In this document: positions 1 to 12,355 of the stretch, one piece after another
Layout: each line of letters starts with the position of its first letter
How positions within the stretch are numbered: position 1 is the stretch's first letter
The notes under the pieces: model-generated
Seen by the model: the letters and a program-made list of their open reading frames with translations, nothing else
Database searches by the model: none
What the model was told of the DNA's origin: nothing
Position numbers and translations under genes: made by a program
Origin: Acidobacteria bacterium RIFCSPLOWO2_12_FULL_66_21
Lineage (GTDB): Bacteria; Acidobacteriota; Vicinamibacteria; Vicinamibacterales; 2-12-FULL-66-21
DNA: 48,342 bases
Direction: 5' to 3'
Assembly (NCBI GenBank): GCA_001767455.1
Contig: MELC01000065.1
Coordinates: forward strand, 1 to 48,342

Positions 1-24
1 CTTTCTCCATCAGACCGCGTAGCC

Positions 25-891
25 ATGATTGTCCTGAAGCTGCTCTCGATCCTGCTCCTGCTCGGCGCCGTGATGCTGTTCGTGTCCTCGTTGTACGGGG
101 AGCTGACGACCTGGTGGACGTCGCGGATCCGCGGGTACGCCCAGTGGATGAGCGTCGAGTTCGAGGGGATGTTCGAGGAGATGCCGCTCGCCCGGGCCGA
201 GCGGCTGATCACCATCACGCTGATCGGGTCGTTTGTCATCGGCTTCATGCTCGGCAGCAGCCTCATGCACCGCGTGTTCGTCGGCCTCGTGTTCGCGGCC
301 GGCGGGTACTTCGGTCCGTGGTTCCTGGTGAAGTACCGCCGCTCGAAGCGGATCGACACCATCGACAATCAGTTCATCGACGCGCTGCACCTGATGTCCA
401 ACGCGCTCAAGTCGGGCCTGAGCCTCCAGCAGGCGCTCGAGCTCGTCGTGCGCGAGATGAAGCCGCCCATCGCGGACGAGTTCGGCCGGCTGGTGAAGGA
501 GATTCATCTCGGCCGGCTCACCGACGACGCCTTGCGGCGGTTCGCCGAGCGGCTGGCGCTCGACGACGTGCAGCTCGCGGTGGATTCGATCCTCACGCTG
601 CGCGAGACGGGCGGCAACCTGAGCGAGACGTTCCAGGTCATCGCCAACACGATCGTCGAGCGGAAGAAGGTGCAGGGCAAGATCAAGGCGATGACGGCGC
701 AGGGCATGACGCAGGGCATGGTCGCGTGCGCGATGCCGATCTTCATGATGCTGATGTTCTCGCTGATCGATCCCGGCTTCATGACGCCGTTCTTCACGAC
801 GCCGCTCGGGTGGATGCTGCTCGTGATGGTGTTCGTGCTCGACGCGATGGGGATGTGGCTGATGTTCAAGCTCGTGAAGGTCGACGTATGA
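25..891 (+). CDS. tadB: Tad pilus inner-membrane platform protein TadB (T2SSF family)
   Basis: A 288-residue membrane protein of the type II secretion F family. Hydrophobic segments lie near residues 2-24, 61-80, 84-102, 230-249 and 260-284. The cytoplasmic T2SSF domain (about 115-235) contains the typical FIDALHLMSNALKSGLSLQQ stretch, closer to TadB than to GspF. TadB is known to pair with TadC to form the platform of the Flp pilus assembly machine. The gene is cut off from its upstream neighbours by the window edge, so the ATPase TadA and secretin genes, if present, lie outside. Its stop codon overlaps the next ATG (ATGA), implying translational coupling. Family call firm; TadB rather than TadC inferred from the central motif. 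Confidence 0.88.
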   Translation: MIVLKLLSILLLLGAVMLFVSSLYGELTTWWTSRIRGYAQWMSVEFEGMFEEMPLARAERLITITLIGSFVIGFMLGSSLMHRVFVGLVFAAGGYFGPWFLVKYRRSKRIDTIDNQFIDALHLMSNALKSGLSLQQALELVVREMKPPIADEFGRLVKEIHLGRLTDDALRRFAERLALDDVQLAVDSILTLRETGGNLSETFQVIANTIVERKKVQGKIKAMTAQGMTQGMVACAMPIFMMLMFSLIDPGFMTPFFTTPLGWMLLVMVFVLDAMGMWLMFKLVKVDV

Positions 892-2060
892 GGCTTCGCG
901 GCGAGCGCGGGCAGACGACGACCGAGTACGTGATGATCGCCGGGCTGATCACGGCCTGCGCGATCGCGCTGCTCGGATTCATGTATCCGTCGTTGAGGAC
1001 TTCGCTGCGCAACGCCGCCGAGTGCGTGATGGGCGACGTGTGCGAGGAGGGGCCGTCGAGCGGAGGTCCTTCGTTCGGCGGCGTCGGCGGCGGGTCCGGC
1101 GCGTCCGGCGGATCCGGCTACACCTACCCCATTCCGGTCCCGGTCCCCGGCGGCACGTCCGTGGGCGCCGCGAATCCGAAGTTCGGCGATGTCGGCAGGG
1201 GCTTCTTCGACAGCATCTATTACTGGCTCCGCCCTGACAAAGCCTGTGACGATGCAAAGAAGAGCGGCGATTCCAATGCGATAGCCGTGGCTTGCGGCAG
1301 CTACGCAGCTGTTCCCGGGGTCCCGTTTGCGAAGGGGACGGGCGACAGTTGCTGCATTGCCGCGAACGACGTCGAACAGGGGGGGATTGGTGACTGCTAT
1401 CTCATGGCCGGGCTGATGGCGGTCGCGAATCAGAATCCGGGATTGATCAACGATGCGATCACAGACAACGGCGACGGGACGTACAAGGTCAGGCTTTACG
1501 TCAGGGACTTCTTTGGGCGCCTCAAGCCCGTGTACGAAACAGTGGACGCGAACTTCCCGACCTATAACGGCCAGAGCGTGTTCGCGCAATCGGGAGATAC
1601 CGCCGGCGGAAAGGCCGAATTGTGGCCGATGCTCATCGAAAAGGCGTATGCGCAGAATCAGGGAGGCTACTCGGATATCGAGGGGGGCTTCGCGGGAGAC
1701 GCAGTCGAGCTCCTGACCGGGAAGCCGGCGGATCATTACTCCGGCGGTCAGAAGGACCTCACCGCAGAATGGCTCGCGGCGCAGCAGCAGAAAGGCGCCA
1801 CGATCACGCTCGGGAGCCTTCCGAAGTCGAAAGCGGCAAAGAACCCTCTTTATTCGAGCTCGCGGCCCGAGAATCAGCGGTTGTTCGCCGGCCACGCGTA
1901 CGTCGTCAGCGCCGTGGATCCCAAGACGGGAATGGTGACCATTCAGAACCCGTGGGGCTGGGACCAGTTTTCGATGACGATCAGCTGGAAGGATTTCCAG
2001 TCAGCATTCGAGGACGTTTACGTGAATGACATTCCAAAGGACTCCAAATGTCCGTGCTGA
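888..2060 (+). CDS. Flp-type prepilin N-terminus fused to a calpain-like (C2) cysteine protease
   Basis: A 390-residue fusion. Residues 1-47 form a class III (Flp/type IVb) prepilin signal: a short basic leader ending at Gly8, then QTTTEY with Glu at +5 and Tyr at +6, then a hydrophobic helix (about 14-33). A Gly/Ser-rich and Pro-rich linker (about 55-90) follows. Residues about 155-385 resemble the calpain protease core. Gln164 and Cys170 sit in QGGIGDCYL, an ELWPMLIEKAYAQ block lies at 244-256, His336 is in GHAYVV and Asn354 in IQNPWGW, so the full catalytic set is visible. The start is the ATG overlapping the tadB stop; longer upstream reading is a tadB shadow. The protease part looks less GC-rich at third positions than its neighbours, suggesting the domain was acquired. 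Predicted role (inference): a protease displayed on, or exported by, the Tad pilus. Domain assignments are firm by motif; the function is not. Confidence 0.85.
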   Translation: MRLRGERGQTTTEYVMIAGLITACAIALLGFMYPSLRTSLRNAAECVMGDVCEEGPSSGGPSFGGVGGGSGASGGSGYTYPIPVPVPGGTSVGAANPKFGDVGRGFFDSIYYWLRPDKACDDAKKSGDSNAIAVACGSYAAVPGVPFAKGTGDSCCIAANDVEQGGIGDCYLMAGLMAVANQNPGLINDAITDNGDGTYKVRLYVRDFFGRLKPVYETVDANFPTYNGQSVFAQSGDTAGGKAELWPMLIEKAYAQNQGGYSDIEGGFAGDAVELLTGKPADHYSGGQKDLTAEWLAAQQQKGATITLGSLPKSKAAKNPLYSSSRPENQRLFAGHAYVVSAVDPKTGMVTIQNPWGWDQFSMTISWKDFQSAFEDVYVNDIPKDSKCPC

Positions 2061-2455
2061 GATTCTCCATGGTCGCCGCGTTCCTGCTCGCCCTCGGCTT
2101 CGGCGGGGCGATCGCTGCCTGCGCCTCGGACGAAACGGCGGACGGTCGCACCCAACCCGAGGACAACACGATCACCGTCCGCGAAGGGACGAGGGCACCG
2201 TACGGCGATCTCATGATCGGCGTATCGAATGTCTGGGAGGACGACTACACGGGCACGGACGGGAAGAAGCACCGCGGCTTGACGGCAGTGCTGACGATTA
2301 CTGATCGGCGGGATCGCGCGAAGAGCCGGATGGTGACCGCCTTCGTCGGGTTCAGCGTTGCGATATCGGACTATCGCATCGGCGTGCTGGACATCACACC
2401 GGGCGAGCGTGGGTCGGTCAAAATGCGCATCCAGAAGACGAAGGCGGTGTCATGA
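2048..2455 (+). CDS. Small putative lipoprotein of unknown function, overlapping the pilin-protease gene
   Basis: A 135-residue protein with a hydrophobic N-terminus (about 5-22) ending in IAAC, an acceptable lipobox with Cys24, followed by a polar stretch rich in acidic residues. The rest (about 40-132) looks beta-rich, with alternating hydrophobic residues, but I recognise no family. The ATG lies 13 bases inside the end of the protease gene, and its own stop overlaps the tadC ATG, so it is tightly coupled to both. Its position beside a secreted cysteine protease would suit an inhibitor, chaperone or anchor, but nothing in the sequence proves this. It could equally be a minor Tad accessory lipoprotein. 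Confidence 0.7.
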   Translation: MSVLRFSMVAAFLLALGFGGAIAACASDETADGRTQPEDNTITVREGTRAPYGDLMIGVSNVWEDDYTGTDGKKHRGLTAVLTITDRRDRAKSRMVTAFVGFSVAISDYRIGVLDITPGERGSVKMRIQKTKAVS

Positions 2456-3333
2456 CGTCAATTGCGTTCGTGTTGTCGTACGCGCTGATGTTCGCGGCGG
2501 TGTCGGTGTTGATGTACAACCTCGCGCCCACGGGCGTGCGGAGTCTCGCGGTCCGCGGGCTGCAGGTGCGGCGCGTCGATTCGTCCAAAGTGCCGTCGCT
2601 GTGGTTCCGGCTGCTGTACCCACTGCTCGACAAGATGGCGCCGCTCTTCAAGGGGCTGCGCCTGACCGGCTACCGCGCGAAAATGGCGGTCGAGCTGCAG
2701 CGCGCGGGCATCGGCGAGTACGTGACCGTCGATCACCTGCTCGCGATGAAGGCGGTGACCGCGCTCTTCGCGCCGCTGTTCCTCTCGCGCTTCCTCGCGG
2801 CGTTCACGAACCCTGCGATCTTCCTGCTGGGCGCCGTCGGCGGCGCGTTCCTGCCGGATCGGCTCGTGACCGATCTCCGGAAGAACCGCGAGCGGCAGAT
2901 TCTCCGCGCGCTGCCCGGATCGGTCGACGTCCTGTCGCTGTCGGTTGAAGCGGGCCTCGAGTTCCTGATCGCGATGCAGCGGCTGGTCGAGCGGGGCGCG
3001 GTCGGTCCGCTTCGCGACGAGCTGGCGACGATCCTCAACGACATCCGCCTCGGCAAGTCGCGCTCGGAAGCGCTCAAGGGATTCGCCTCCCGCGTGGCGA
3101 TTCCCGAGGTGTCCTCGTTCGTGTCGATGCTCGTGCAGGCCGACATGCTCGGCGCCTCGATCGGCCCCGTGCTGCAGCAGCAAGCGGAGCGGATGCGCGT
3201 CGAGCGGTTCCAGCGCGCCGAGAAGGCGGGCGCGCGCGCGACGCAGAAGATTCTCGTGCCGCTGGCGTTCTTCATCTTCCCGGCGGTGCTGATCGTGATC
3301 ATGGGCCCCGTGGCGCTGCAGTTCCTGAAATGA
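2452..3333 (+). CDS. tadC: Tad pilus inner-membrane platform protein TadC (T2SSF family)
   Basis: A 293-residue protein with an N-terminal membrane helix (about 4-23), a hydrophobic central pair (about 96-140), a T2SSF domain (about 155-265) and a C-terminal helix (about 266-290). The motif LPGSVDVLSLSVEAGLEFLI is typical of TadC, with an acidic residue following the conserved Val. It is the expected partner of TadB, although here two non-canonical genes have come between them. It starts at an ATG overlapping the lipoprotein stop and ends with an ATGA overlap into the DUF192 gene. Confidence 0.87.
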   Translation: MTSIAFVLSYALMFAAVSVLMYNLAPTGVRSLAVRGLQVRRVDSSKVPSLWFRLLYPLLDKMAPLFKGLRLTGYRAKMAVELQRAGIGEYVTVDHLLAMKAVTALFAPLFLSRFLAAFTNPAIFLLGAVGGAFLPDRLVTDLRKNRERQILRALPGSVDVLSLSVEAGLEFLIAMQRLVERGAVGPLRDELATILNDIRLGKSRSEALKGFASRVAIPEVSSFVSMLVQADMLGASIGPVLQQQAERMRVERFQRAEKAGARATQKILVPLAFFIFPAVLIVIMGPVALQFLK

Positions 3334-3704
3334 CCGTACGGGCGTCACCCGGCGTTCGCGTGAAGGTGCGGGTCGCAGCGACCGGCCGGGTGCTCGCGCG
3401 CGCGGAGCTCGCGGCGACGCCGCTGCGCCGGCTGCGCGGCCTTCTGGGCCGCGACGGGCTCGCGGCGGGCGACGGCCTCGTCATCGATCCGTGCTCGTCG
3501 GTGCACACATGTTTCATGCGGTTCCCGATCGACTTGCTCTTCATCGACCGCGACGGGCGCGTCCTGCGTGCGGCCGAAAATGTCGGGCCGTTCCGTTTCG
3601 TGTCCGGCGGACGCGGCGCCAGGCGCACGATTGAACTGCCCGCGGGCACCATTGCGAATGCGAAGGTCGCGCCGGGTGCGACCCTCGCGCTGGATCCGGC
3701 ATGA
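3330..3704 (+). CDS. DUF192 family protein
   Basis: A 124-residue protein matching DUF192. The conserved core includes RRLRGLLGR near residue 33, then SSVHTCFMRFPIDLLFIDRDG (about 57-77), and a C-terminal IELPAGTIANAKVAPG segment. The biochemical role of the family is unknown. Members often have a signal peptide; this one shows no clear one, so it is probably cytoplasmic. It is coupled to tadC and to the following FHA gene by overlapping start and stop codons. Confidence 0.82.
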   Translation: MTVRASPGVRVKVRVAATGRVLARAELAATPLRRLRGLLGRDGLAAGDGLVIDPCSSVHTCFMRFPIDLLFIDRDGRVLRAAENVGPFRFVSGGRGARRTIELPAGTIANAKVAPGATLALDPA

Positions 3705-5326
3705 GCCGCAGACTTCTCGTCCACGACGGGCATGCCGAGCGCGAGCTCCTGCTCGTGGGGACGATGGCCGTCGGCCGCGACCCGCGCTGCGACATCAGCG
3801 ACGCGGACCCGCTGCTGTCGCGGCGTCACGCGGAGTTCATCACGGATCGCGCCACGGTCCGCGTGCGCAACCTGCAGAGCCGGAACGGCGTCGAGGTCAA
3901 CGGCGTCAACGTTACGGATGCGGTGCTGCATCCCGGCGATGTCATCCGGATTGCGAACCTGACGATGCGGTACGTGGCCGACGAGGACACCGTCACGCCC
4001 ACCCGCATTTCCGCGGCGGATGCGGACGGCGATGCCGACAAGACCGTCCTCGTGCCGCCGCCCGTCGCGCCGGGTGGAGGGCCGTCCGCGGCAGCGGAGC
4101 GCCCGCAGCCGGCCGGTGAAGAGGAAGACGATGCGACGCGGTTGGTGGCGCCGCCGGCAGCCGGGCGCCGCGACCGCGTGGAGGCGAGGCCGATGCGCAG
4201 GCCGCCGTCGGCGGCGCCGAAACGGCCGCAGCCGGTGCCGCAACCTGCCGGCCGCCCATCGCAGAAGCCGCGCACCGCGTGGAGCACCCGGATCACCGTG
4301 CGCGTCGTGGCGCTCGCGACGGGCGTGTTTCTCCTGGCCGCGGTGCCCTTGTGGGTGTGGCAGCAGGGCGTGATGAACCGCGCGGCGGTCGTGCGCGCCA
4401 CCGCGATGGCGCAGTGGCTCGCCGCCGATGCCGCCGCCGCCGATGAGGCGGGCGTCATCCAGGATGCGGCCAACGCCGTCGGACGCGAGCCCGGCGTCGT
4501 CGCGGCGCTCGTGCTCGGCCCGGAGGGACAGGTGCTGTCGCCGTCGGCGCGCGCCGCCGAGGCGTTCAGGACGATCCCGGGCATCCCGGTCGCGGTGCCG
4601 GACATCGGCCGGCTGCGCGCGGGATGGAACGGCTCGTTGGTGGAGGTCGCCGCGCCCGTCGTCTCGCGGCGCCGAGGACGGGTTGGCGTCGCGTGGGTCA
4701 CGGTGCATCCGCCGTCGCTTCCCGACGCGGGGGCGGGCGCGGTGGTCATCCTGGCGCCCGCGCTCCTCATCGCATTGGCCGCCGGGTTCGGCGTGGCCGT
4801 GAGCATCCGCCGCGTCACCGATGCCGGAGTGAAGGCGCTCAACCAGGACATCGAGCTGGCGTTGAGCGGCCACGTGGCGTCGGTCGTCGACACGCTTGGG
4901 TCGCGGCCGCTGCGGGATCTCACCGACACGCTCAACTATCTCATCACGCGACTGCGCTACGAGTCGGACGAGGGAGCAAAGGCCGCGGAGGCGCCGCCGC
5001 CCGCGTCCGATGCGGCCCCGCCCAGCGGATATCAGCGCGCGCGCATCGTCAGCGACGGCGCGTTCCGCGTCAGCGAGGCGAGTCCCGGCTGCCTGGATCT
5101 GCTCGGACTGAAACCGGCGGCCCTCGTCGGGCAGCACCTGCTCGACGGCCTGTCGGACGGCGCCATCGGCGACGCGATGCTGAAGTGCCTCGCTGACGTG
5201 CAGCCGGGGTCGGATGCCCATGCCGTCGTCCCCGGCCGCGGACTGCGGGTGTCGGTGGCACGGCCGGTGAAGGATGGGCCGGTCACGATCACGTTCACGC
5301 GCGATCACTCGGTGATGCCCACATGA
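3701..5326 (+). CDS. Membrane sensor with N-terminal FHA domain and C-terminal PAS-like domain
   Basis: A 541-residue protein. The FHA domain covers about 1-95 and has the phosphothreonine-binding signature: Gly25-Arg26, Ser40 with Arg41 and His43, Asn62-Gly63 and Asn67-Gly68. A Pro/Ala/Arg-rich linker (about 100-195) leads to a membrane helix near 196-220, an extracytoplasmic region of about 125 residues, a second helix near 346-370, a HAMP-like stretch, and a PAS-like fold at about 445-540. No kinase, cyclase or response domain is present. It probably reads a phosphorylated partner on the inside while sensing something in the periplasm. Overlaps with both neighbours (ATGA) place it firmly in the operon. 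Confidence 0.8.
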   Translation: MSRRLLVHDGHAERELLLVGTMAVGRDPRCDISDADPLLSRRHAEFITDRATVRVRNLQSRNGVEVNGVNVTDAVLHPGDVIRIANLTMRYVADEDTVTPTRISAADADGDADKTVLVPPPVAPGGGPSAAAERPQPAGEEEDDATRLVAPPAAGRRDRVEARPMRRPPSAAPKRPQPVPQPAGRPSQKPRTAWSTRITVRVVALATGVFLLAAVPLWVWQQGVMNRAAVVRATAMAQWLAADAAAADEAGVIQDAANAVGREPGVVAALVLGPEGQVLSPSARAAEAFRTIPGIPVAVPDIGRLRAGWNGSLVEVAAPVVSRRRGRVGVAWVTVHPPSLPDAGAGAVVILAPALLIALAAGFGVAVSIRRVTDAGVKALNQDIELALSGHVASVVDTLGSRPLRDLTDTLNYLITRLRYESDEGAKAAEAPPPASDAAPPSGYQRARIVSDGAFRVSEASPGCLDLLGLKPAALVGQHLLDGLSDGAIGDAMLKCLADVQPGSDAHAVVPGRGLRVSVARPVKDGPVTITFTRDHSVMPT

Positions 5327-6219
5327 GGACGACGACATACGGAGCGGCGATCGAGCGGCCGGCGATTGTCTGGGAACGTGCGGGCGGTGCGGTGGAGTAC
5401 GGGATCTGGCCGGAGCGGCCGGTCACGATCGGACGCGAGTCGACCAACACGATCGTCATCGAATCGCCGTTCGTGTCCAAGGCGCACGCGATCCTGCAGT
5501 TCCAGAACGGGCAGTACATCCTGGAGGATCTCGGGAGCGCGAACGGCACGCGGGTCAACGGCCAGCCGATCGAATCGGCGGTGCTGCGCCCCGGAGACGC
5601 CATCGAGTTCGGCGACCAGCGACTTATGTTCGTGGACCGATCGGCCGCCGCGGCCACGGCCGGAGGCGGGCTCTCGAAAGGGACGAAGCTCGCGCTGGTG
5701 GCCGGTGGAACGGCGGTCGTCATGATCGTGCTGCTCGGGCTGCTCGTGAGCTCGGTCGAGCCGAAGAAGGCCGACGGAAAGGGAACGGGGGCGGCCACGG
5801 AAAAGGCAGCGATCGCCACCGGCCATTTGTCCGCGACGGTGACGGTGTCGGGCATCGTGGCGGAAGTCGTCGCCCGCGCCGGCCGCGCGGGGGTCAAGCC
5901 GACCGACGCACTGTACGACGAGGCGCAGGTGCAGTTCCGCGTGGGACGCCTGCGCGAAACGCGGGAACTGCTCGCCGCGGTGGTCGCGCGCGACCCGTCG
6001 CATGAGCTCGCGGCGAACCGGCTGCACGCCGTCGAGGGGCTGCTGTCCCAGTCGATCACGCAGTTCGGCGGCGAGGCGGATCGCGCCTTCGCGCAGCTTC
6101 GCTTTGACGCGGCGATTGCCGCGTGGGAACAGGTGCTGCTGCTGGCCGAGCCGGACGATCCGCGGTACGCGACCGCGCAGCAGGGACTCACGCGCGCACG
6201 CGCGCGCCTTACGAGGTGA
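5323..6219 (+). CDS. FHA-domain membrane protein with C-terminal TPR-like region
   Basis: A 298-residue protein. The FHA domain (about 15-105) has Gly37-Arg38, Ser52 with Lys53 and His55, and Asn74-Gly75, so phosphothreonine binding looks intact. A single membrane helix (about 122-144) is followed by a helical, Ala/Arg-rich C-terminal half (about 165-298) that resembles degenerate TPR repeats and would lie outside the inner membrane. Its start overlaps the preceding stop. It is likely a target or reader of the Ser/Thr kinase encoded further down the operon, which is inference from context. Confidence 0.78.
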   Translation: MRTTTYGAAIERPAIVWERAGGAVEYGIWPERPVTIGRESTNTIVIESPFVSKAHAILQFQNGQYILEDLGSANGTRVNGQPIESAVLRPGDAIEFGDQRLMFVDRSAAAATAGGGLSKGTKLALVAGGTAVVMIVLLGLLVSSVEPKKADGKGTGAATEKAAIATGHLSATVTVSGIVAEVVARAGRAGVKPTDALYDEAQVQFRVGRLRETRELLAAVVARDPSHELAANRLHAVEGLLSQSITQFGGEADRAFAQLRFDAAIAAWEQVLLLAEPDDPRYATAQQGLTRARARLTR

Positions 6220-6225
6220 ACGAGG

Positions 6226-7737
6226 GTGGCGACACTTGTGGTCTACCGCGGCGATACGCTGGTCACGCGCGTCGAGCTCGGCCAGCAGGACATCCGCATC
6301 GGGCGCGCGCAGGACAACGATCTTGCGCTTGAGGACCCCGGGAAGGCGGTCTCGCGCTTCCACGCCGAGCTGCGGCACGAGAACGGACAGTACATCCTGC
6401 TCGATCTGAACAGCCAGAACGGCGTGTGGATCGACGGCCGGCGCATCCAGCGCGAGGCGCTCAACGACGGGTCGGCGGCCACCGTCGGTCCGTACCGGCT
6501 CGTCGTCGAGGGCCTCGCGGCGCAGGGTTCGCCTGGCGCGGCCCAAGCGCCCCAGCCGGCGGCGCAGAGGACGTCTGACACGATCGTGGCCGGCCAGCGG
6601 AGGCCGCCGGCGGCGGACGTGCGTCCATCCCCATCCGCATCGCGCCGCCCGCCCGTCAAAGCTTCAAACCGCGCCGGCACGGCCGCACCCGCGCCGGGAT
6701 TCATCGGATGGCTCCTGCAGTTGCCGCGGCCTGTGCTCTTCGGGGGGTTCGGCGGGGTGATGCTGCTCATCATCATCGCCGGGCAAATCTTCAGGCGAAG
6801 TCCCTCGGCGCCGCCGCCGGTGACGAGCACGACGGCCGACACGGGCGCGCCCCAGCCTGCGACTCCAGGCAACACCGATCTGATCGCGGAGCATTTGACC
6901 GCCGGCAAACTCGCGTTGCAGGAGCATCGGCCCGCCGACGCCGTCGAGCAGTTCAATCAGGTCCTGCTCATCGACAAGGAGCACGCCGAGGCGCTCGAGC
7001 TAAAGGCGAAAGCCGAGGAGGCCGTGCGGCAGGCGTCCTCGGCGGCGGCGCAGGCTCCAGTGCCACCGAGGCTGCCGAAGGCGACGACGCCGGCGCCGGT
7101 GAGCGCTCCGGCCGAGAAGGCGAGCGCCCCGGCAGAGAAGATGAGCGCTCCGGACAAGGCAAAACCTGTCCCTGCCGTCCAGACGGCCAACACGGGAGGA
7201 ACGGTGCCGCCGCGACCGCAGCCGGCGGGCGGGCGGAGAGGCGGCCGCGAGCAGGCGCAGGCGCAGTACGCGTCGGCGAAAGCCGCCCTCGATCGCGGCG
7301 ACTGGGCGGAGGCCCAGCGCCAGCTGACGGTGCTCATCAAGGACGATCCCGGATTCCTCGACGCCGCCACGTTGCTCGAGCGGGCACGCGAAGTCGAAAT
7401 ACAGGCGCAGCGGCAGCAGGCGGCGCAGGTGGTGGCCGAGGCGAAGAAGCTCGACGCCTCCTCGGAATGGAAGCCGGCGATCGAGGCGTACCAGCGCGCG
7501 CTCAAGCTGGATCCCTCCCTCGACGCGACCGTGTCGGCGGCCATCGGCCAAATCCGGCAGAAGATGCGGCAGGCGGGTGAGGACGCGTTCAAGCGCGCGC
7601 GTCAGTACGACGCGGTCGGCCGCGCACCCGAGGCGCTCGCACTCTACGAGCGCGCCGTCCAGCTTCTCGCCGAGGACCACCCGAGCCGCGCGACGGCACA
7701 GGATCGCGCGGCCACGCTGAGGGCGGCGATTCGATGA
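6226..7737 (+). CDS. FHA-domain membrane protein with TPR repeats
   Basis: A 503-residue protein starting with GTG, six bases after the previous stop, with a purine-rich ACGAGG element just upstream. The FHA domain (about 1-95) carries Gly26-Arg27, Ser43-Arg44, His46 and Asn65-Gly66. A low-complexity Pro/Ala linker precedes a membrane helix (about 168-189). The C-terminal part holds TPR-like units separated by a Pro/Ala/Lys linker (first near 220-265, several more from about 345 to the end). This is the third FHA protein in a row with the same overall plan (FHA inside, helix, protein-interaction repeats outside), which suggests duplication followed by divergence. Confidence 0.8.
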   Translation: MATLVVYRGDTLVTRVELGQQDIRIGRAQDNDLALEDPGKAVSRFHAELRHENGQYILLDLNSQNGVWIDGRRIQREALNDGSAATVGPYRLVVEGLAAQGSPGAAQAPQPAAQRTSDTIVAGQRRPPAADVRPSPSASRRPPVKASNRAGTAAPAPGFIGWLLQLPRPVLFGGFGGVMLLIIIAGQIFRRSPSAPPPVTSTTADTGAPQPATPGNTDLIAEHLTAGKLALQEHRPADAVEQFNQVLLIDKEHAEALELKAKAEEAVRQASSAAAQAPVPPRLPKATTPAPVSAPAEKASAPAEKMSAPDKAKPVPAVQTANTGGTVPPRPQPAGGRRGGREQAQAQYASAKAALDRGDWAEAQRQLTVLIKDDPGFLDAATLLERAREVEIQAQRQQAAQVVAEAKKLDASSEWKPAIEAYQRALKLDPSLDATVSAAIGQIRQKMRQAGEDAFKRARQYDAVGRAPEALALYERAVQLLAEDHPSRATAQDRAATLRAAIR

Positions 7738-9572
7738 CCCACCAGGAGCTCGAGCAGCGGCTGAGCGAGTTGCTCGTCGAGCGCGGCCTGCTCTCGGCGC
7801 GCGCGGTGGAGCGCGCGCGCGAGTTCCAGGCGTCGCGGCGGTCCACCTTGGCGGCCGCCCTCGTGCACCTGCATCTCGTGCCGGACGATCGGCTGCGGCT
7901 GGCGCTCGAGGAGCTGACTGGCGTCCGGGCCGTCGACCCTTCGCTGATTTCCGTGTATCCGGAGTTCGTCGAGCGGATGAACCTGCTCATCCCCCCGCCG
8001 ATCGCCCAGCGGCTGCTCGTGTTTCCCGTGCAGATGGAAATCAACGCGATCCACGTCTGCATGCTGAACCCGACCGACGGCATCACGCGCCGCGTCCTGG
8101 AAGCGATCTCCGGCTGCCAGGTGAAACCGCTGGTGTCGTACGAGCCCGCGGTGATCGCGGCGCTCGAGAAGTACTACGCGCCGCAGGCGCAGGGCGCCAT
8201 CACGTACCAGCCGCTCGATCCGGCGGAGGTCGTGGGCGAGGTGTGGCGCGCGCTGCTGGCGCGGCCGCTCGAAAGCTACGCGGACGCGGCGATAGGCCTG
8301 ATCAACCGGAGCCGCGACGCCATCATGCGCGACCCGGGCGCGCTCGAACAGCTCGTGCGGGATCCGATCATGATCCGGTTCGTGCAGCAGATCCTCTGCC
8401 GCGCCGTCGAAAGCGGAGCGAGCGACGTGCACATCGAACCGGGCAATACGTGCCTGCGCGTCCGGCTGCGGATCGACGGCGCGATGCAGGTGATGTGCAC
8501 GCTCCCTCCCGCGGCCGGCCCGGCGGTGCTCGCGCGGCTCAAGGCGATGGCGGAGCTGCCGCTCGAGACCGCGTCCACGCCGCAGGACGCCAGCATCGGC
8601 TACGACCTGATGCTGAACCGCGCGATCGATCTCCGTTTCTCACTTGTGCCATCGGTCGCCGGCGACACGGTCGTGCTCCGCGTGCTCGATCGCGGGACAA
8701 CGCGGCGCACGCTCGTGGAGCTCGGCGCGGACGAGCGGTCGCGCGCCGCGATCGAGGCGGCCATCGACCTGCCGAACGGCCTGCTGCTCGTCACCGGCCC
8801 GACCGGGAGCGGCAAGAGCTCGACGCTCTACGCGCTGCTCGATCGCCTCAACGCGGAAGACGCCAGCGTGATCACCGCCGAGGATCCGGTCGAGTCCCGG
8901 ATTGAAGGGGTGACCCAGGTGCAGTGCGACCAGGCGACGCTGACCTTCGCCTCCGCCCTGCGCAGCTTCCTCCGCCAGGATCCGGACGTCGTCATGGTCG
9001 GAGAAATCCGCGATCTGGAGACGGCCGACGTGGCGCTGAAGGCCGCGCTGACCGGCCACCTCGTGCTGTCCACGCTGCACACGAACGATGCGGCCGGCGC
9101 AATCCTGCGGCTCGTGAACATGTCGCTCGAGCCGTTTTTGATCGCATCCGCCCTCCGGCTGGTGATCGCGCAACGTCTCGTGCGGCGCCTGTGTGCCTCG
9201 TGCAAGCGGCCGACGCCGCAGGCGCAGGAGCGGCTGATCGAGGTGTGCGCCGCGTCCGAGCTCGCGGTGCCCCCGGATGCCTGCGCGTACGAGAGTGTCG
9301 GGTGTCCGTCGTGCCGCGGTACGGGCTACCGCGGGCGCACCGGTATTTTCGAAGTGTTGCGCGTGACGGAACGGATCGAGGACCTGATTCTCTCGCGCGC
9401 CAGCGCTACGACGATCCGCGAAGCGGCGCGCGGCGAGGGGATGCACACGCTGCGCGACGCCGCGCTCCTCCGAGCCGCCGCGGCGGAGACCTCCCTCAGC
9501 GAAGTGCTGCAGCACACCATCGCTCCCACTTCGGCCGCCGAGATCAACGAATCGAGGACGGTCCATGTCTAA
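7734..9572 (+). CDS. GspE/PilB-family secretion or pilus assembly ATPase
   Basis: A 612-residue AAA-type ATPase. An MshEN-like N-terminal region (about 1-150) precedes the T2SSE core. The Walker A motif is GPTGSGKS with Lys361, followed by AEDPVESRIEGV (Asp box), the Walker B region DPDVVMVGEIRD, and a His-box stretch GHLVLSTLHTND. Two CxxC pairs (CASC and CPSC) form the zinc knuckle found in PilB and GspE but not in the CpaF/TadA family. It is therefore an extension ATPase of the T2S/T4P class lying in a Tad-type operon. Its ATG overlaps the preceding stop and its stop overlaps the next start by eight bases. Confidence 0.9.
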   Translation: MTHQELEQRLSELLVERGLLSARAVERAREFQASRRSTLAAALVHLHLVPDDRLRLALEELTGVRAVDPSLISVYPEFVERMNLLIPPPIAQRLLVFPVQMEINAIHVCMLNPTDGITRRVLEAISGCQVKPLVSYEPAVIAALEKYYAPQAQGAITYQPLDPAEVVGEVWRALLARPLESYADAAIGLINRSRDAIMRDPGALEQLVRDPIMIRFVQQILCRAVESGASDVHIEPGNTCLRVRLRIDGAMQVMCTLPPAAGPAVLARLKAMAELPLETASTPQDASIGYDLMLNRAIDLRFSLVPSVAGDTVVLRVLDRGTTRRTLVELGADERSRAAIEAAIDLPNGLLLVTGPTGSGKSSTLYALLDRLNAEDASVITAEDPVESRIEGVTQVQCDQATLTFASALRSFLRQDPDVVMVGEIRDLETADVALKAALTGHLVLSTLHTNDAAGAILRLVNMSLEPFLIASALRLVIAQRLVRRLCASCKRPTPQAQERLIEVCAASELAVPPDACAYESVGCPSCRGTGYRGRTGIFEVLRVTERIEDLILSRASATTIREAARGEGMHTLRDAALLRAAAAETSLSEVLQHTIAPTSAAEINESRTVHV

Positions 9573-10527
9573 GAGGGTTCTCGCTTGTCTGCTTGCGGCG
9601 TTGCTCGCGCCCATTCCCGGAGGGGCGGCGCAGCGTCCGCGCTGGCTGCTCGGCAGCGGCAGGGGAGTCGAATACCAGCGCTTCGAGGCGCCGGGCAAGG
9701 GGTTCTCGCTGGAGTACCCGAAAAAAGAGTGGCAGGTGGTATCCGGCGCCGGGTCCATCGTGGTCGTGTTCGCGCAATCGAAGAGCGAAGCGTCCGTCGC
9801 GATCGACCACACGCTCCTCAAGACCGCGCTCGCCCCCGAGGAAATCACGCAGTTGTTCGCGGATCTCGAGGTCGAGCATGTCAAGCAGCGGGATTCCGGC
9901 GTGCAGGGCATTCGCACGGCGCTGCAGACCGACACGGACGGTCGCCGGATCATCGTGATCGACTACACGCGTGTCGGGCTCAAAGGGCAGGAGCAGGTCC
10001 GGCAGTACTCGCTGCCGTTCGGTGCCGATCTGTTCCGACTGATCTGCAATGCGCAGGCCGCGAGCTTCGCCAAGCACGAACCGGTGTTCGAGCACATGGC
10101 GCAGACGTTCCGCGGAGGTGCGCCAATCACAGCAACCGCCGACGAGCCCAAGCCGGCGGGCGCATTGGTCGGGACGGCCCCGGCGGCTCCGGATGCCTCC
10201 GTCGGCATGGATCTCACGACGGCGGCGCCTCCGCAGGGGGCCAAGGTAACTCCGCCGAAGCTCGTCAAGCAGGTACCGCCGCAGTATCCAGCCCGCGCCC
10301 TGGCATCTCATATCGAAGGTGTTGTGACGGTTCGTGCGAGCATCGATCCTGCGGGATCCGTGGTCGGCGTTGAGGTTGTCAAGTCCATGCCGTCAGATCC
10401 CGATATGGTCCAAGCCGCTCTGAGAGCCGTTCGACAGTGGAAGTTTTCACCGGCACTGGTGGATGGCGTTCCGACCTCGGTGGTTCTTACGGTGAATGTT
10501 GCATTCCGTCTCGAAGGGCGTGTCTAG
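9565..10527 (+). CDS. Secreted protein with C-terminal TonB domain
   Basis: A 320-residue protein with a signal peptide (about 1-22, ending PGGAAQ). The middle (about 30-185) starts with FEAPGKGFSLEYPKKEW and resembles the PsbP-like or DUF1795-type fold. After a flexible Pro/Ala segment, residues about 235-317 form a TonB C-terminal domain: PPQYPARAL, a repeated strand pattern and VRQWKFSPALVDGVP. Unlike a classical TonB it has no N-terminal membrane anchor, so it is probably periplasmic and may serve as an adaptor rather than an energy transducer. It overlaps the upstream ATPase gene. Confidence 0.78.
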   Translation: MSKRVLACLLAALLAPIPGGAAQRPRWLLGSGRGVEYQRFEAPGKGFSLEYPKKEWQVVSGAGSIVVVFAQSKSEASVAIDHTLLKTALAPEEITQLFADLEVEHVKQRDSGVQGIRTALQTDTDGRRIIVIDYTRVGLKGQEQVRQYSLPFGADLFRLICNAQAASFAKHEPVFEHMAQTFRGGAPITATADEPKPAGALVGTAPAAPDASVGMDLTTAAPPQGAKVTPPKLVKQVPPQYPARALASHIEGVVTVRASIDPAGSVVGVEVVKSMPSDPDMVQAALRAVRQWKFSPALVDGVPTSVVLTVNVAFRLEGRV

Positions 10528-10531
10528 TCCG

Positions 10532-12355
10532 ATGCTGGATGACAGCCTCCGCAAGATCGGCCGGTACGAAATCCTCGAACGCGTAGGCCGGGGTGGCATG
10601 GGAGTGCTCTATCGCGGCCGTGACACCGTGCTCGATCGGGAGGTCGCGATCAAAGTGATGTCGGGCGACTTCGCGGAGGACGAGACGGCACACAGCCGCT
10701 TCTTCCGCGAGGCGAAGGCCGCCGCCCGGCTGCAGCATCGCAACGTCGTCACGGTCTTCGAGTTCGCGGAACACGACGAGACACCCTACATCGTCATGGA
10801 ATTCCTCCGCGGGCGCAGCCTGGCGACGCGCCTGAAGGACGGCACCCCCCTCAAGCTGCCCGAGACGCTCGACATCGTGATCCAGTTGTGCGCGGGGCTC
10901 GAGTTCGCTCACCGCGAGGGGGTCATCCACCGCGATGTGAAGCCGGGAAACATCTGGCTGTGCGAGGACGGCACGGCGAAGCTGCTGGACTTCGGCATCG
11001 CCAAGTCGGCTGCCTCCACCGTCACCAAGGCCGGCGACGTCATGGGCAGTCCCTCCTACATGTCTCCAGAGCAGATCGGCGGGCGCGAGCTCGACGGCCG
11101 CTCTGATGTGTTTTCCGCCGGCGTCGTCCTCTACGAGCTGCTCTCAGGCCGCAAGCCGTTCGAAGCCGATTCCCCTACGGCCGTGATGATGAAGATCGTG
11201 CAGGAGACCGCCCGTCCGCTGCAGGAGCTCGCGCCGGACGTGCCGCCGGCGCTCGCCGCCGCCACCTCCCACGCGCTCGAGAAGGATCCGGACGCGCGCT
11301 ACGCGCGCGCGGCCGACTTCGCGGCGGACCTCCAGCTCGTGCGCCTGGCGCTCGAGGATGGCGCGGGCCTCGATCAGAGCGTGCTGCTCGCCGAAACGAT
11401 GTACGCCGAGGACCTGCGCCGCCAGACAGGGCCGTCCATCGCGGGTGCGACGTCGCTGTTGACGCCCCCGGGCGGCCGGCGCGGAATCCGCGGGGCCGAG
11501 CCCGTGGCGCCGCCAGCCCTCTGGCGGCGGCCGGCGGTGCTGGGCGTGGCCGCGCTCGTCGTGCTGATCGTCGCCGCCCTGGGAACGGCGATGTGGTGGC
11601 AGAAGCCGCCTGCGATCGACGACACCAGCGAACCGACGGCGGCGCCGTCAGCCCTTCCGGCGAAAGAGGCCACGCTTCCGCCACCAGCCCCGGTGACGCC
11701 GCTGACCGCCGAGCATCCGCGCGCGCTGGAGATCACGTCCGATCCGCCCGGCGCGGCCATCATCGTTGACGGCCGCGACACGCACAAGGTGACGCCGGCG
11801 GAGATCCCCCTTGAGGGGTCGAAGCGTCCGCGACGCGTGCGCCTGACGAAACGCTCGTTTGAACCCCGCGACGTCATCGTGAGCGACGACGTGCTTCAGC
11901 AGGGCAAGCTAACTGTGACGCTGGATCCGGCGAACACGTCCCCGGTCACGGTCGATGTGGCGCCGGCGAGCGAGGGGTCCTACCCGTTCGAGGTGCTCGA
12001 CGGCAGTCGCGTCATTTCCGCCGCCGCGACGAGCCATCACCTGACGGTGTCGGGCCGGCGCTCGCTGCGCCTGCGCGCACCGGAGTACTTCCTCGACCAG
12101 AGCGTCACCGTCGATCCGGCGTCTGGACGGCAGGCGCATTTCCAGGCCCCCGGCCTGGGACGGCTGACCGTCCGGACACCGCTCGAGACCTGCACCGTGA
12201 TGATTGCCGGCCGGTCGCTCGGCTTTCCACCGATCGTGAACGTGCCGATCGCGGCCGGCAAGTACACGGTCCAACTCAAATGTCAATCCGAACCCAACCG
12301 CCAGGCCGCCGTGACGATTTCGGCCCGCCAGGATTCCGTGGAGATCATCCGATGA
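10532..12355 (+). CDS. Hanks-type Ser/Thr protein kinase with membrane helix and PEGA domains
   Basis: A 607-residue kinase. The catalytic domain (about 10-280) shows the Gly-rich loop GRGGMG, Lys41 in VAIKVM, the HRDVKPGN catalytic loop with Asp135 and Asn140, DFG at 153-155, and SPEQI after a Thr-rich activation loop, so it should be active. A membrane helix lies near 333-356. The extracytoplasmic part has PEGA-type beta repeats (LEITSDPPGAAIIVDGRD near 395). I chose ATG 10532 (MLDDSLRKIGRYEI), five bases after the previous stop; an in-frame ATG at 10496 would overlap the TonB-domain gene by 32 bases. It is the obvious source of phosphothreonine for the three FHA proteins of the operon (inference). 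Confidence 0.9.
   Translation: MLDDSLRKIGRYEILERVGRGGMGVLYRGRDTVLDREVAIKVMSGDFAEDETAHSRFFREAKAAARLQHRNVVTVFEFAEHDETPYIVMEFLRGRSLATRLKDGTPLKLPETLDIVIQLCAGLEFAHREGVIHRDVKPGNIWLCEDGTAKLLDFGIAKSAASTVTKAGDVMGSPSYMSPEQIGGRELDGRSDVFSAGVVLYELLSGRKPFEADSPTAVMMKIVQETARPLQELAPDVPPALAAATSHALEKDPDARYARAADFAADLQLVRLALEDGAGLDQSVLLAETMYAEDLRRQTGPSIAGATSLLTPPGGRRGIRGAEPVAPPALWRRPAVLGVAALVVLIVAALGTAMWWQKPPAIDDTSEPTAAPSALPAKEATLPPPAPVTPLTAEHPRALEITSDPPGAAIIVDGRDTHKVTPAEIPLEGSKRPRRVRLTKRSFEPRDVIVSDDVLQQGKLTVTLDPANTSPVTVDVAPASEGSYPFEVLDGSRVISAAATSHHLTVSGRRSLRLRAPEYFLDQSVTVDPASGRQAHFQAPGLGRLTVRTPLETCTVMIAGRSLGFPPIVNVPIAAGKYTVQLKCQSEPNRQAAVTISARQDSVEIIR

What the first reader, a model, noticed from the sequence alone, without database searches (positions are those of the whole stretch)
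888..2060. Flp prepilin N-terminus fused to a calpain-type cysteine protease inside a tad locus
Seen: a perfect class III prepilin signal (Gly8, then QTTTEY and a hydrophobic helix) followed by a linker and a C2 peptidase with Gln164, Cys170, His336 and Asn354. Known: Flp prepilins are cut by a prepilin peptidase at that Gly and polymerised or extruded by TadA/B/C, and calpain-family proteases are cytoplasmic in eukaryotes but varied in bacteria. Inferred: the Tad machine displays or exports a protease as a pilin-like subunit. I know of no description of this architecture.
Basis: partly seen in the sequence, partly recalled or inferred. Interest (0 to 1): 0.87.

Follow-up and report, generated by a model that had tools for sequence, protein, structure and literature searches.

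The report
Pilus subunit carrying a calpain protease
A bacterium has a calpain-like protein-cutting enzyme fused onto one of the tiny building blocks of its adhesive Tad pilus, which suggests that a pilus could carry an enzyme to whatever it touches.

Summary
ORF 888-2060 is one gene of 390 aa. Residues 1-55 are a Flp-type (Tad) prepilin: a profile of the nine equivalent pilins of related genomes scores them 82.8 bits, against at most 6.7 for 5000 shuffles. Residues 158-375 are Peptidase_C2 (E=2.5e-28) with Gln164, Cys170, His336 and Asn354 in place.

The tad locus continues on contig C56, whose last 82 bases equal the window start. Ten of 162 genomes of the order have this locus. In all ten a fourth flp gene follows tadB: seven are short; three are extended, by calpain here, about 360 residues with a GHSEG motif in G015, and about 95 residues in G024. 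In G000 and G015 the passenger has lower GC3 than the pilin part. Peptidase_C2 was found in 1 of 396 sampled genomes of the phylum, this one.

Best reading: a Tad 'modular pilin' displaying a protease, probably at the pilus tip. Modular pilins, some with peptidase modules, are published for pilins with the N_methyl motif; I found no Flp-calpain case in print. Export, activity and target are untested.

The parts
25..891 (+). tadB (T2SSF domain protein)
   Evidence: Pfam T2SSF E=2.6e-20; 10 of 162 genomes of the order have it at E<=1e-40
888..2060 (+). the fusion gene: Flp-type prepilin plus calpain-type protease, 390 aa
888..1052 (+). Flp prepilin module, aa 1-55; predicted cleavage after Gly8 (codon 909-911), Glu at position 5 of the mature pilin, CX5C at Cys46/Cys52
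   Evidence: leave-one-out profile 82.8 bits; alignment of ten slot pilins
1053..1358 (+). linker and uncharacterised stretch, aa 56-157; aa 56-100 are 29 of 45 Gly, Ser or Pro
   Evidence: no Pfam match here
1359..2012 (+). Peptidase_C2 (calpain) domain, aa 158-375; Gln164, Cys170 (1395-1397), His336 (1893-1895), Asn354 (1947-1949)
2048..2455 (+). 135-aa exported protein with a lipobox-like IAAC (recalled rule); predicted beta-sandwich; possible partner or inhibitor of the protease
   Evidence: no Pfam match; single-sequence model, 8 strands, mean pLDDT 69.3 for the best of five models; no confident PDB fold; 2 of 158 other genomes match at E<=0.01
2452..3333 (+). tadC-like gene (T2SSF)
   Evidence: Pfam T2SSF E=5.5e-17; relative found downstream of the slot in 8 of the 9 other loci, the ninth contig (G037) ending first
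3701..7737 (+). three FHA-domain proteins of the same locus (context)
   Evidence: Pfam FHA
7734..9572 (+). GspE/PilB-like ATPase with MshEN domain (context)
   Evidence: Pfam T2SSE E=2e-115, MshEN E=8.6e-9

Best explanation
The gene encodes a modular Tad pilin. The fourth Flp subunit of a Tad locus has gained a C-terminal calpain-type cysteine protease behind a Gly/Ser/Pro-rich linker. Expected route: insertion into the inner membrane, cleavage after Gly8 by a prepilin peptidase, and incorporation by TadA/B/C as a minor subunit. The protease would lie outside the cytoplasm, most likely at the pilus tip, and act on surfaces or cells that the pilus touches. Shown here: the fusion, the homology of both halves, the locus, the conserved slot and the replaceable C-terminus. 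Inferred: processing, assembly, tip position, proteolytic activity, target, and a role of the 135-aa protein as partner or inhibitor.
For: Both halves significant. The equivalent gene after tadB is a plain short Flp in seven of ten loci, so the pilin part is a resident pilin. Two other genomes have other C-terminal extensions on the same pilin. The rest of the machine is in the genome: TadE, Tad/TadG-like, CpaB, secretin and TadZ-TadA type protein on the overlapping contig, two Peptidase_A24 genes. Catalytic Gln/Cys/His/Asn present. Published Tad work: the pilin C-terminus points outward; filament about 4.5 nm in a pore of about 5 nm, so a 25-kDa domain (about 4 nm across by a recalled rule) could go ahead of the filament but hardly beside it.
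Against: No experiment; the protein was found once. The single-sequence structure model was uninformative (pLDDT 40.7). Pfam Flp_Fap does not report it. The published secretin gate opening is 31 A and would have to open further; a fused domain might instead block assembly. The catalytic Cys would have to stay reduced outside the cytoplasm.
Confidence: 0.55

Rival explanations
1. Contact-dependent effector: the Tad machine delivers the calpain domain to neighbouring cells as a toxin, and the overlapping 135-aa lipoprotein-like protein protects the producer. The tadB-tadC slot is then an exchangeable effector cassette.
For: Constant pilin part with different C-termini, and a different neighbour gene, in G000 and G015. 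Lower GC3 of both passengers. A Tad-like machine kills prey on contact in Myxococcus (PMC8460266, passages). Calpains fused to WXG100 domains are called likely T7SS toxins by a reviewer in PMC4631099 (passages).
Against: The relative of the 135-aa protein in G046 is the end of a 302-aa protein without a protease beside it in the 3.3 kb read, so it need not be an immunity protein. In G015 the neighbour is an FGE-sulfatase-type protein. In G024 tadC follows the extended pilin directly. No toxicity data.
Confidence: 0.22
2. Inner-membrane-anchored periplasmic protease: the pilin-type N-terminus only anchors it, and it trims pilins or other envelope proteins without being polymerised.
For: A fused domain may not pass the published conduit. 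Co-located with the tad genes.
Against: The pilin part keeps the conserved Gly, Glu5 and Tyr6 and is replaced by a plain pilin in seven of ten loci that have no protease there, so the machine does not need the protease.
Confidence: 0.15
3. Misassembly or a chance join of two genes.
For: No second genome has the same fusion; composition changes along the gene; no reads available.
Against: One open frame of 390 codons with 4- and 13-base overlaps to its neighbours and a 4-base overlap of the next pair. G015 and G024 show other extensions of the same pilin.
Confidence: 0.05

Closest known systems
Modular type IV pilins (PilB and PilC of Streptococcus sanguinis; PMC8179133, passages)
   Same: A pilin module with a class III signal, a linker and a functional domain foreign to pili; a survey of 264 architectures, with S74 and M26 peptidase modules; tip position proposed
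   Different: The survey started from the N_methyl motif IPR012902. Here the pilin is Flp-type, in a tad locus, and the module is a calpain
Bacterial calpains (PMC4631099, passages; relatives)
   Same: Peptidase_C2 domain at the C-terminus, catalytic residues kept, N-terminal part variable; rare and scattered
   Different: N-termini there are signal peptides, WXG100, discoidin, PPC and others; the word pilin does not occur in that paper; none of the five relatives aligned here is a Flp fusion
Kil Tad-like apparatus of Myxococcus xanthus (PMC8460266, passages)
   Same: Tad-type machine with several pilins, acting at cell contact
   Different: No enzyme fused to a pilin appears in the passages read; the paper says it is unclear whether Kil secretes a toxin
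Flp pilins of Bdellovibrio (PMC5430801, passages)
   Same: Four flp genes, a motif GXXXXEY, a tad locus
   Different: No enzyme fusion appears in the passages read; three of the four were reported essential for predation

Membership tests
Calpain family (Peptidase_C2, MEROPS C2) | Significant match to the catalytic domain | tested here: met
   E=2.5e-28, profile positions 46-259 of 297
Calpain family (Peptidase_C2, MEROPS C2) | Catalytic Gln, Cys, His, Asn | tested here: met
   Q164, C170, H336, N354
Calpain family (Peptidase_C2, MEROPS C2) | Proteolytic activity; calcium dependence | not testable with these tools
   needs an assay; calcium-site residues were not examined
Flp (Tad, type IVc) prepilin | Short leader ending in Gly, then XXXXEY and a hydrophobic helix | tested here: met
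   MRLRGERG/QTTTEY; profile 82.8 bits
Flp (Tad, type IVc) prepilin | Pfam Flp_Fap match above cut-off | tested here: not met
   not reported at E<=0.1; also not reached by four short flp genes of such loci, so this does not separate them
Flp (Tad, type IVc) prepilin | Lies in a tad locus with motor, platform, secretin and a prepilin peptidase in the genome | tested here: met
   the peptidase is outside the window
Flp (Tad, type IVc) prepilin | Cleaved and polymerised | not testable with these tools
   needs an experiment
Modular pilin (sense of PMC8179133) | Pilin module plus a domain not specific to pilus biology in one protein | tested here: met
Modular pilin (sense of PMC8179133) | IPR012902 (N_methyl) pilin motif used in that survey | tested here: not met
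   the Pfam scan shows no N_methyl match; so an analogue in the Flp family rather than a member of the surveyed set
Polymorphic toxin system | Constant delivery part with variable C-termini | tested here: inconclusive
   three different extensions on the pilin in ten loci; toxic activity unknown
Polymorphic toxin system | Adjacent immunity gene | tested here: inconclusive
   a 135-aa gene in G000, an FGE-type gene in G015, none between slot gene and tadC in G024

The most novel reading that the evidence does not exclude
The place between tadB and tadC in this Tad lineage is an exchangeable cargo site: a resident fourth Flp pilin receives different C-terminal domains, in two of three cases with a different envelope protein beside it, so that the Tad pilus works as a contact-dependent enzyme or effector delivery system.
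Probability: 0.25. Interest if true: 0.85.

Novelty: new variant of a known kind. Interest (0 to 1): 0.62.

Why it matters
Tad pilins are tiny and lack the globular head of other type IV pilins (PMC11067988, passages). A Flp subunit with a protease on it would carry the modular-pilin principle into the Tad family and give a bacterial calpain a plausible workplace outside the cell. It also gives a testable case for what a Tad pilus can do beyond sticking: carry an enzyme, or an effector, to the point of contact. Whether Tad-like machines deliver a toxin is stated as unclear for the Kil system (PMC8460266, passages).

Tried and rejected
Structure of P0001: the single-sequence AlphaFold2 model had mean pLDDT 40.7, so I made no fold search with it. 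For the 135-aa protein the best of five models had pLDDT 69.3, the others 38.7-53.2; its fold search gave nothing at E<=0.001 and a PDB sequence search nothing at E<=10. NCBIfam had no match above cut-off for P0001 or the 135-aa protein and PADLOC none at E<=0.01. Viral contigs: no relative of P0001. A further G015 match (C13:34291) proved to be a short Flp without passenger. Regions from G303, G261, G025, G039 and G023, read by my gene caller, showed no extended pilin among the genes it marked; the caller reads the low-GC G303 regions badly. Calpains elsewhere: six plasmid records at 26-32% identity, four of which I opened; and 1 of 267 genomes sampled from the phylum of G545, with a hydrophobic N-terminal stretch and no Flp. 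P0001 gave no match in 8 genomes behind 8 of the TadB loci, where the tool warns that an empty answer shows nothing.

I considered the 135-aa protein as a dedicated immunity protein and kept this only as a possibility. Misassembly was judged unlikely, not excluded.

Limits: gene calls in related genomes come from my own scripts. The caller missed the slot pilin and tadC of G017; the pilin was seen by motif search and tadC by tblastn. In G037 the contig ends before tadC. The paper searches cover an open-access library only.

Full report
WHAT IS THERE. The window is bases 1-48342 of contig C65 of a 6.48-Mb genome in 91 contigs. Bases 888-2060 encode one 390-aa protein, P0001. Its ATG lies 4 bases inside the end of tadB (25-891); the next gene (2048-2455) starts 13 bases before the end of the fusion gene; tadC (2452-3333) overlaps that gene by 4 bases. 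The four look like one translationally coupled run (inference).

THE TWO HALVES. Pfam finds Peptidase_C2 at residues 158-375 (E=2.5e-28), and solved calpains align there (calpain-9, E about 1e-14). Against five other bacterial calpains, Gln, Cys and His are kept in all five and Asn in four; Calothrix has Ser. Residues 1-55 match pilins in other genomes of the order (G069 E=2.5e-10, G027 2.2e-9, G055 3.6e-9). A profile of the nine other slot pilins, without the window sequence, scores 82.8 bits; the best of 5000 shuffles of residues 1-60 scores 6.7. Pfam's Flp_Fap model was not reported for P0001 at E<=0.1. Of four short flp genes of such loci it stayed below its cut-off in two and was not reported in two, so the model is simply weak for this lineage.

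THE LOCUS. The last 82 bases of the fetched end of contig C56 equal the first 82 of the window. C56 (L047) carries three further flp genes, a TadE-like protein (22.5 bits, just under the cut-off of 22.9), a Tad/TadG-like protein, a further gene without Pfam match, CpaB/RcpC, a secretin and a TadZ-TadA type protein, preceded by a PP2C phosphatase and a protein kinase. After tadC come a DUF192 protein, three FHA proteins and a GspE-like ATPase. Two Peptidase_A24 (prepilin peptidase family) genes exist, one at C65:60324, outside the window.

THE SLOT IN RELATIVES. A TadB match at E<=1e-40 occurs in 10 of 162 genomes of the order; with a profile at E<=1e-50 in the same 10 of 193 in the class. I fetched the loci of the other nine. 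In all ten a fourth flp gene follows tadB. A tadC relative lies beyond it in 8 of the 9 others; in G037 the contig ends first. Seven slot pilins are short, 45-50 residues after the cleavage site. Three are extended: G000 by calpain; G015, 411 residues after the site, about 360 of them beyond the pilin part and including GHSEG; G024, 143 residues, about 95 beyond the pilin part, a proline run and then a Cys-rich stretch.

THE G015 PASSENGER. It has only a weak, sub-threshold Pfam match (DUF900, E=0.22), no convincing PDB match, no plasmid relative and one marginal match in the 148 other genomes searched (E=0.005). 'Hydrolase-like' therefore rests on the motif. Its pilin part has Gln where Glu5 is expected. 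The gene after it is an FGE-sulfatase-type protein (E=3.3e-46), where G000 has the 135-aa gene; tadC follows.

ORIGIN OF THE PASSENGER. Peptidase_C2 occurs in 1 of 162 genomes of the order and 1 of 396 sampled from the phylum, each time this genome. GC3 falls from 0.93 in the pilin part to 0.77 in the calpain part, against a median of 0.90 for 47 called window genes; in G015 from 0.85 to 0.61, its slot gene being the lowest of 18 called genes. Three of the 47 window genes are lower than the fusion gene as a whole, and the G024 extension shows no drop (0.93 against 0.86). Composition thus supports, but does not prove, a later gain of the passenger in two of the three cases.

THE NEIGHBOUR. The 135-aa protein begins with a hydrophobic stretch ending in IAAC, a lipobox-like motif (recalled rule). 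Its best single-sequence model shows eight strands with pLDDT around 80 in the core, while the other four models were poorer; no confident PDB match was found. Two of 158 other genomes match it; the better match is the end of a 302-aa exported-looking protein. It may bind or inhibit the protease; nothing shows this.

HOW IT MAY WORK. Published Tad work says that the pilin C-terminus points outward (PMC11067988, passages), that the filament is about 4.5 nm and the RcpC ring pore about 5 nm (PMC12307814, passages), and that the secretin has a 31 A gate opening and a 62 A lumen (PMC10499894, passages). Residues 156-390 weigh 25.4 kDa, about 4 nm across if compact (recalled rule). The domain should fit ahead of the filament but hardly beside it, so I favour a tip subunit. 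The alternatives are a contact-delivered effector and a membrane-held periplasmic protease.

COMPARISON WITH WHAT IS KNOWN. PMC8179133 (passages) defines modular pilins, counts 264 architectures with the N_methyl motif and names S74 and M26 peptidase modules. PMC4631099 (passages) describes bacterial calpains, some with signal peptides and some with WXG100 domains; the terms pilin and Acidobacteria have no occurrence there. Searches for calpain with Tad pilus, calpain with prepilin, Flp pilin with protease domain and fusion, and modular pilins with type IV and domain architectures found no paper. Tad with polymorphic toxin and prepilin found only the Kil paper. Calpain with polymorphic toxin found three papers, of which I read passages; none describes a pilin fusion in those passages. 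A broader search listed 20 of 422 papers, of which I opened PMC8179133 and PMC10499894.

VERDICT. Real and well formed; as far as searched, undescribed as an architecture; a new variant of the modular-pilin idea in the Tad family.

Noticed in passing
L058, L060, L062, L063, L064, L065, L066, L067, L068, L070 (just after tadB): In 10 of 15 more distant tad loci examined (records titled Bdellovibrionales, Bacteriovoracaceae/-ales/-ia, Oligoflexia, Deltaproteobacteria and others; L061 not examined), the gene after tadB encodes an RHS/YD-type protein, in most with a Sec-like N-terminus. Pfam DUF6531 and RHS_repeat confirm 6 of the 8 post-tadB genes scanned; the two without (L055, L069) are small other genes; four of the ten were judged by reading alone. 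Another lineage thus keeps exported cargo-like genes beside tadB.
   Followed up: partly
L040:8462-9721 (genome G015): The slot pilin of G015 carries about 360 extra residues with a GHSEG motif and has Gln in place of Glu5; the next gene is an FGE-sulfatase-type protein.
   Followed up: partly
L038, reverse strand, 1167-1595 (genome G024): The slot pilin of G024 has a proline run and then a Cys-rich stretch without a Pfam match above cut-off.
   Followed up: no
L083, L084, L085, L086 (plasmid records): Calpain-type genes occur on six plasmid records, whereas PMC4631099 (2015) says none are on plasmids. The one on a Mycolicibacterium plasmid lies beside a small membrane-like gene and an FtsK/SpoIIIE-domain gene, as expected for a type VII substrate (inference).
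   Followed up: no
window 3701-12355 and L047:5792-9242: The tad locus is framed by a PP2C phosphatase, two protein kinases, three FHA proteins and a second, GspE-like ATPase with MshEN domain, which hints at phosphorylation control of the pilus.
   Followed up: no
window 1-82 and L047 end (C56:36170): Contigs C56 and C65 share 82 identical bases at the point where they meet, inside the tadA-tadB junction.
   Followed up: yes
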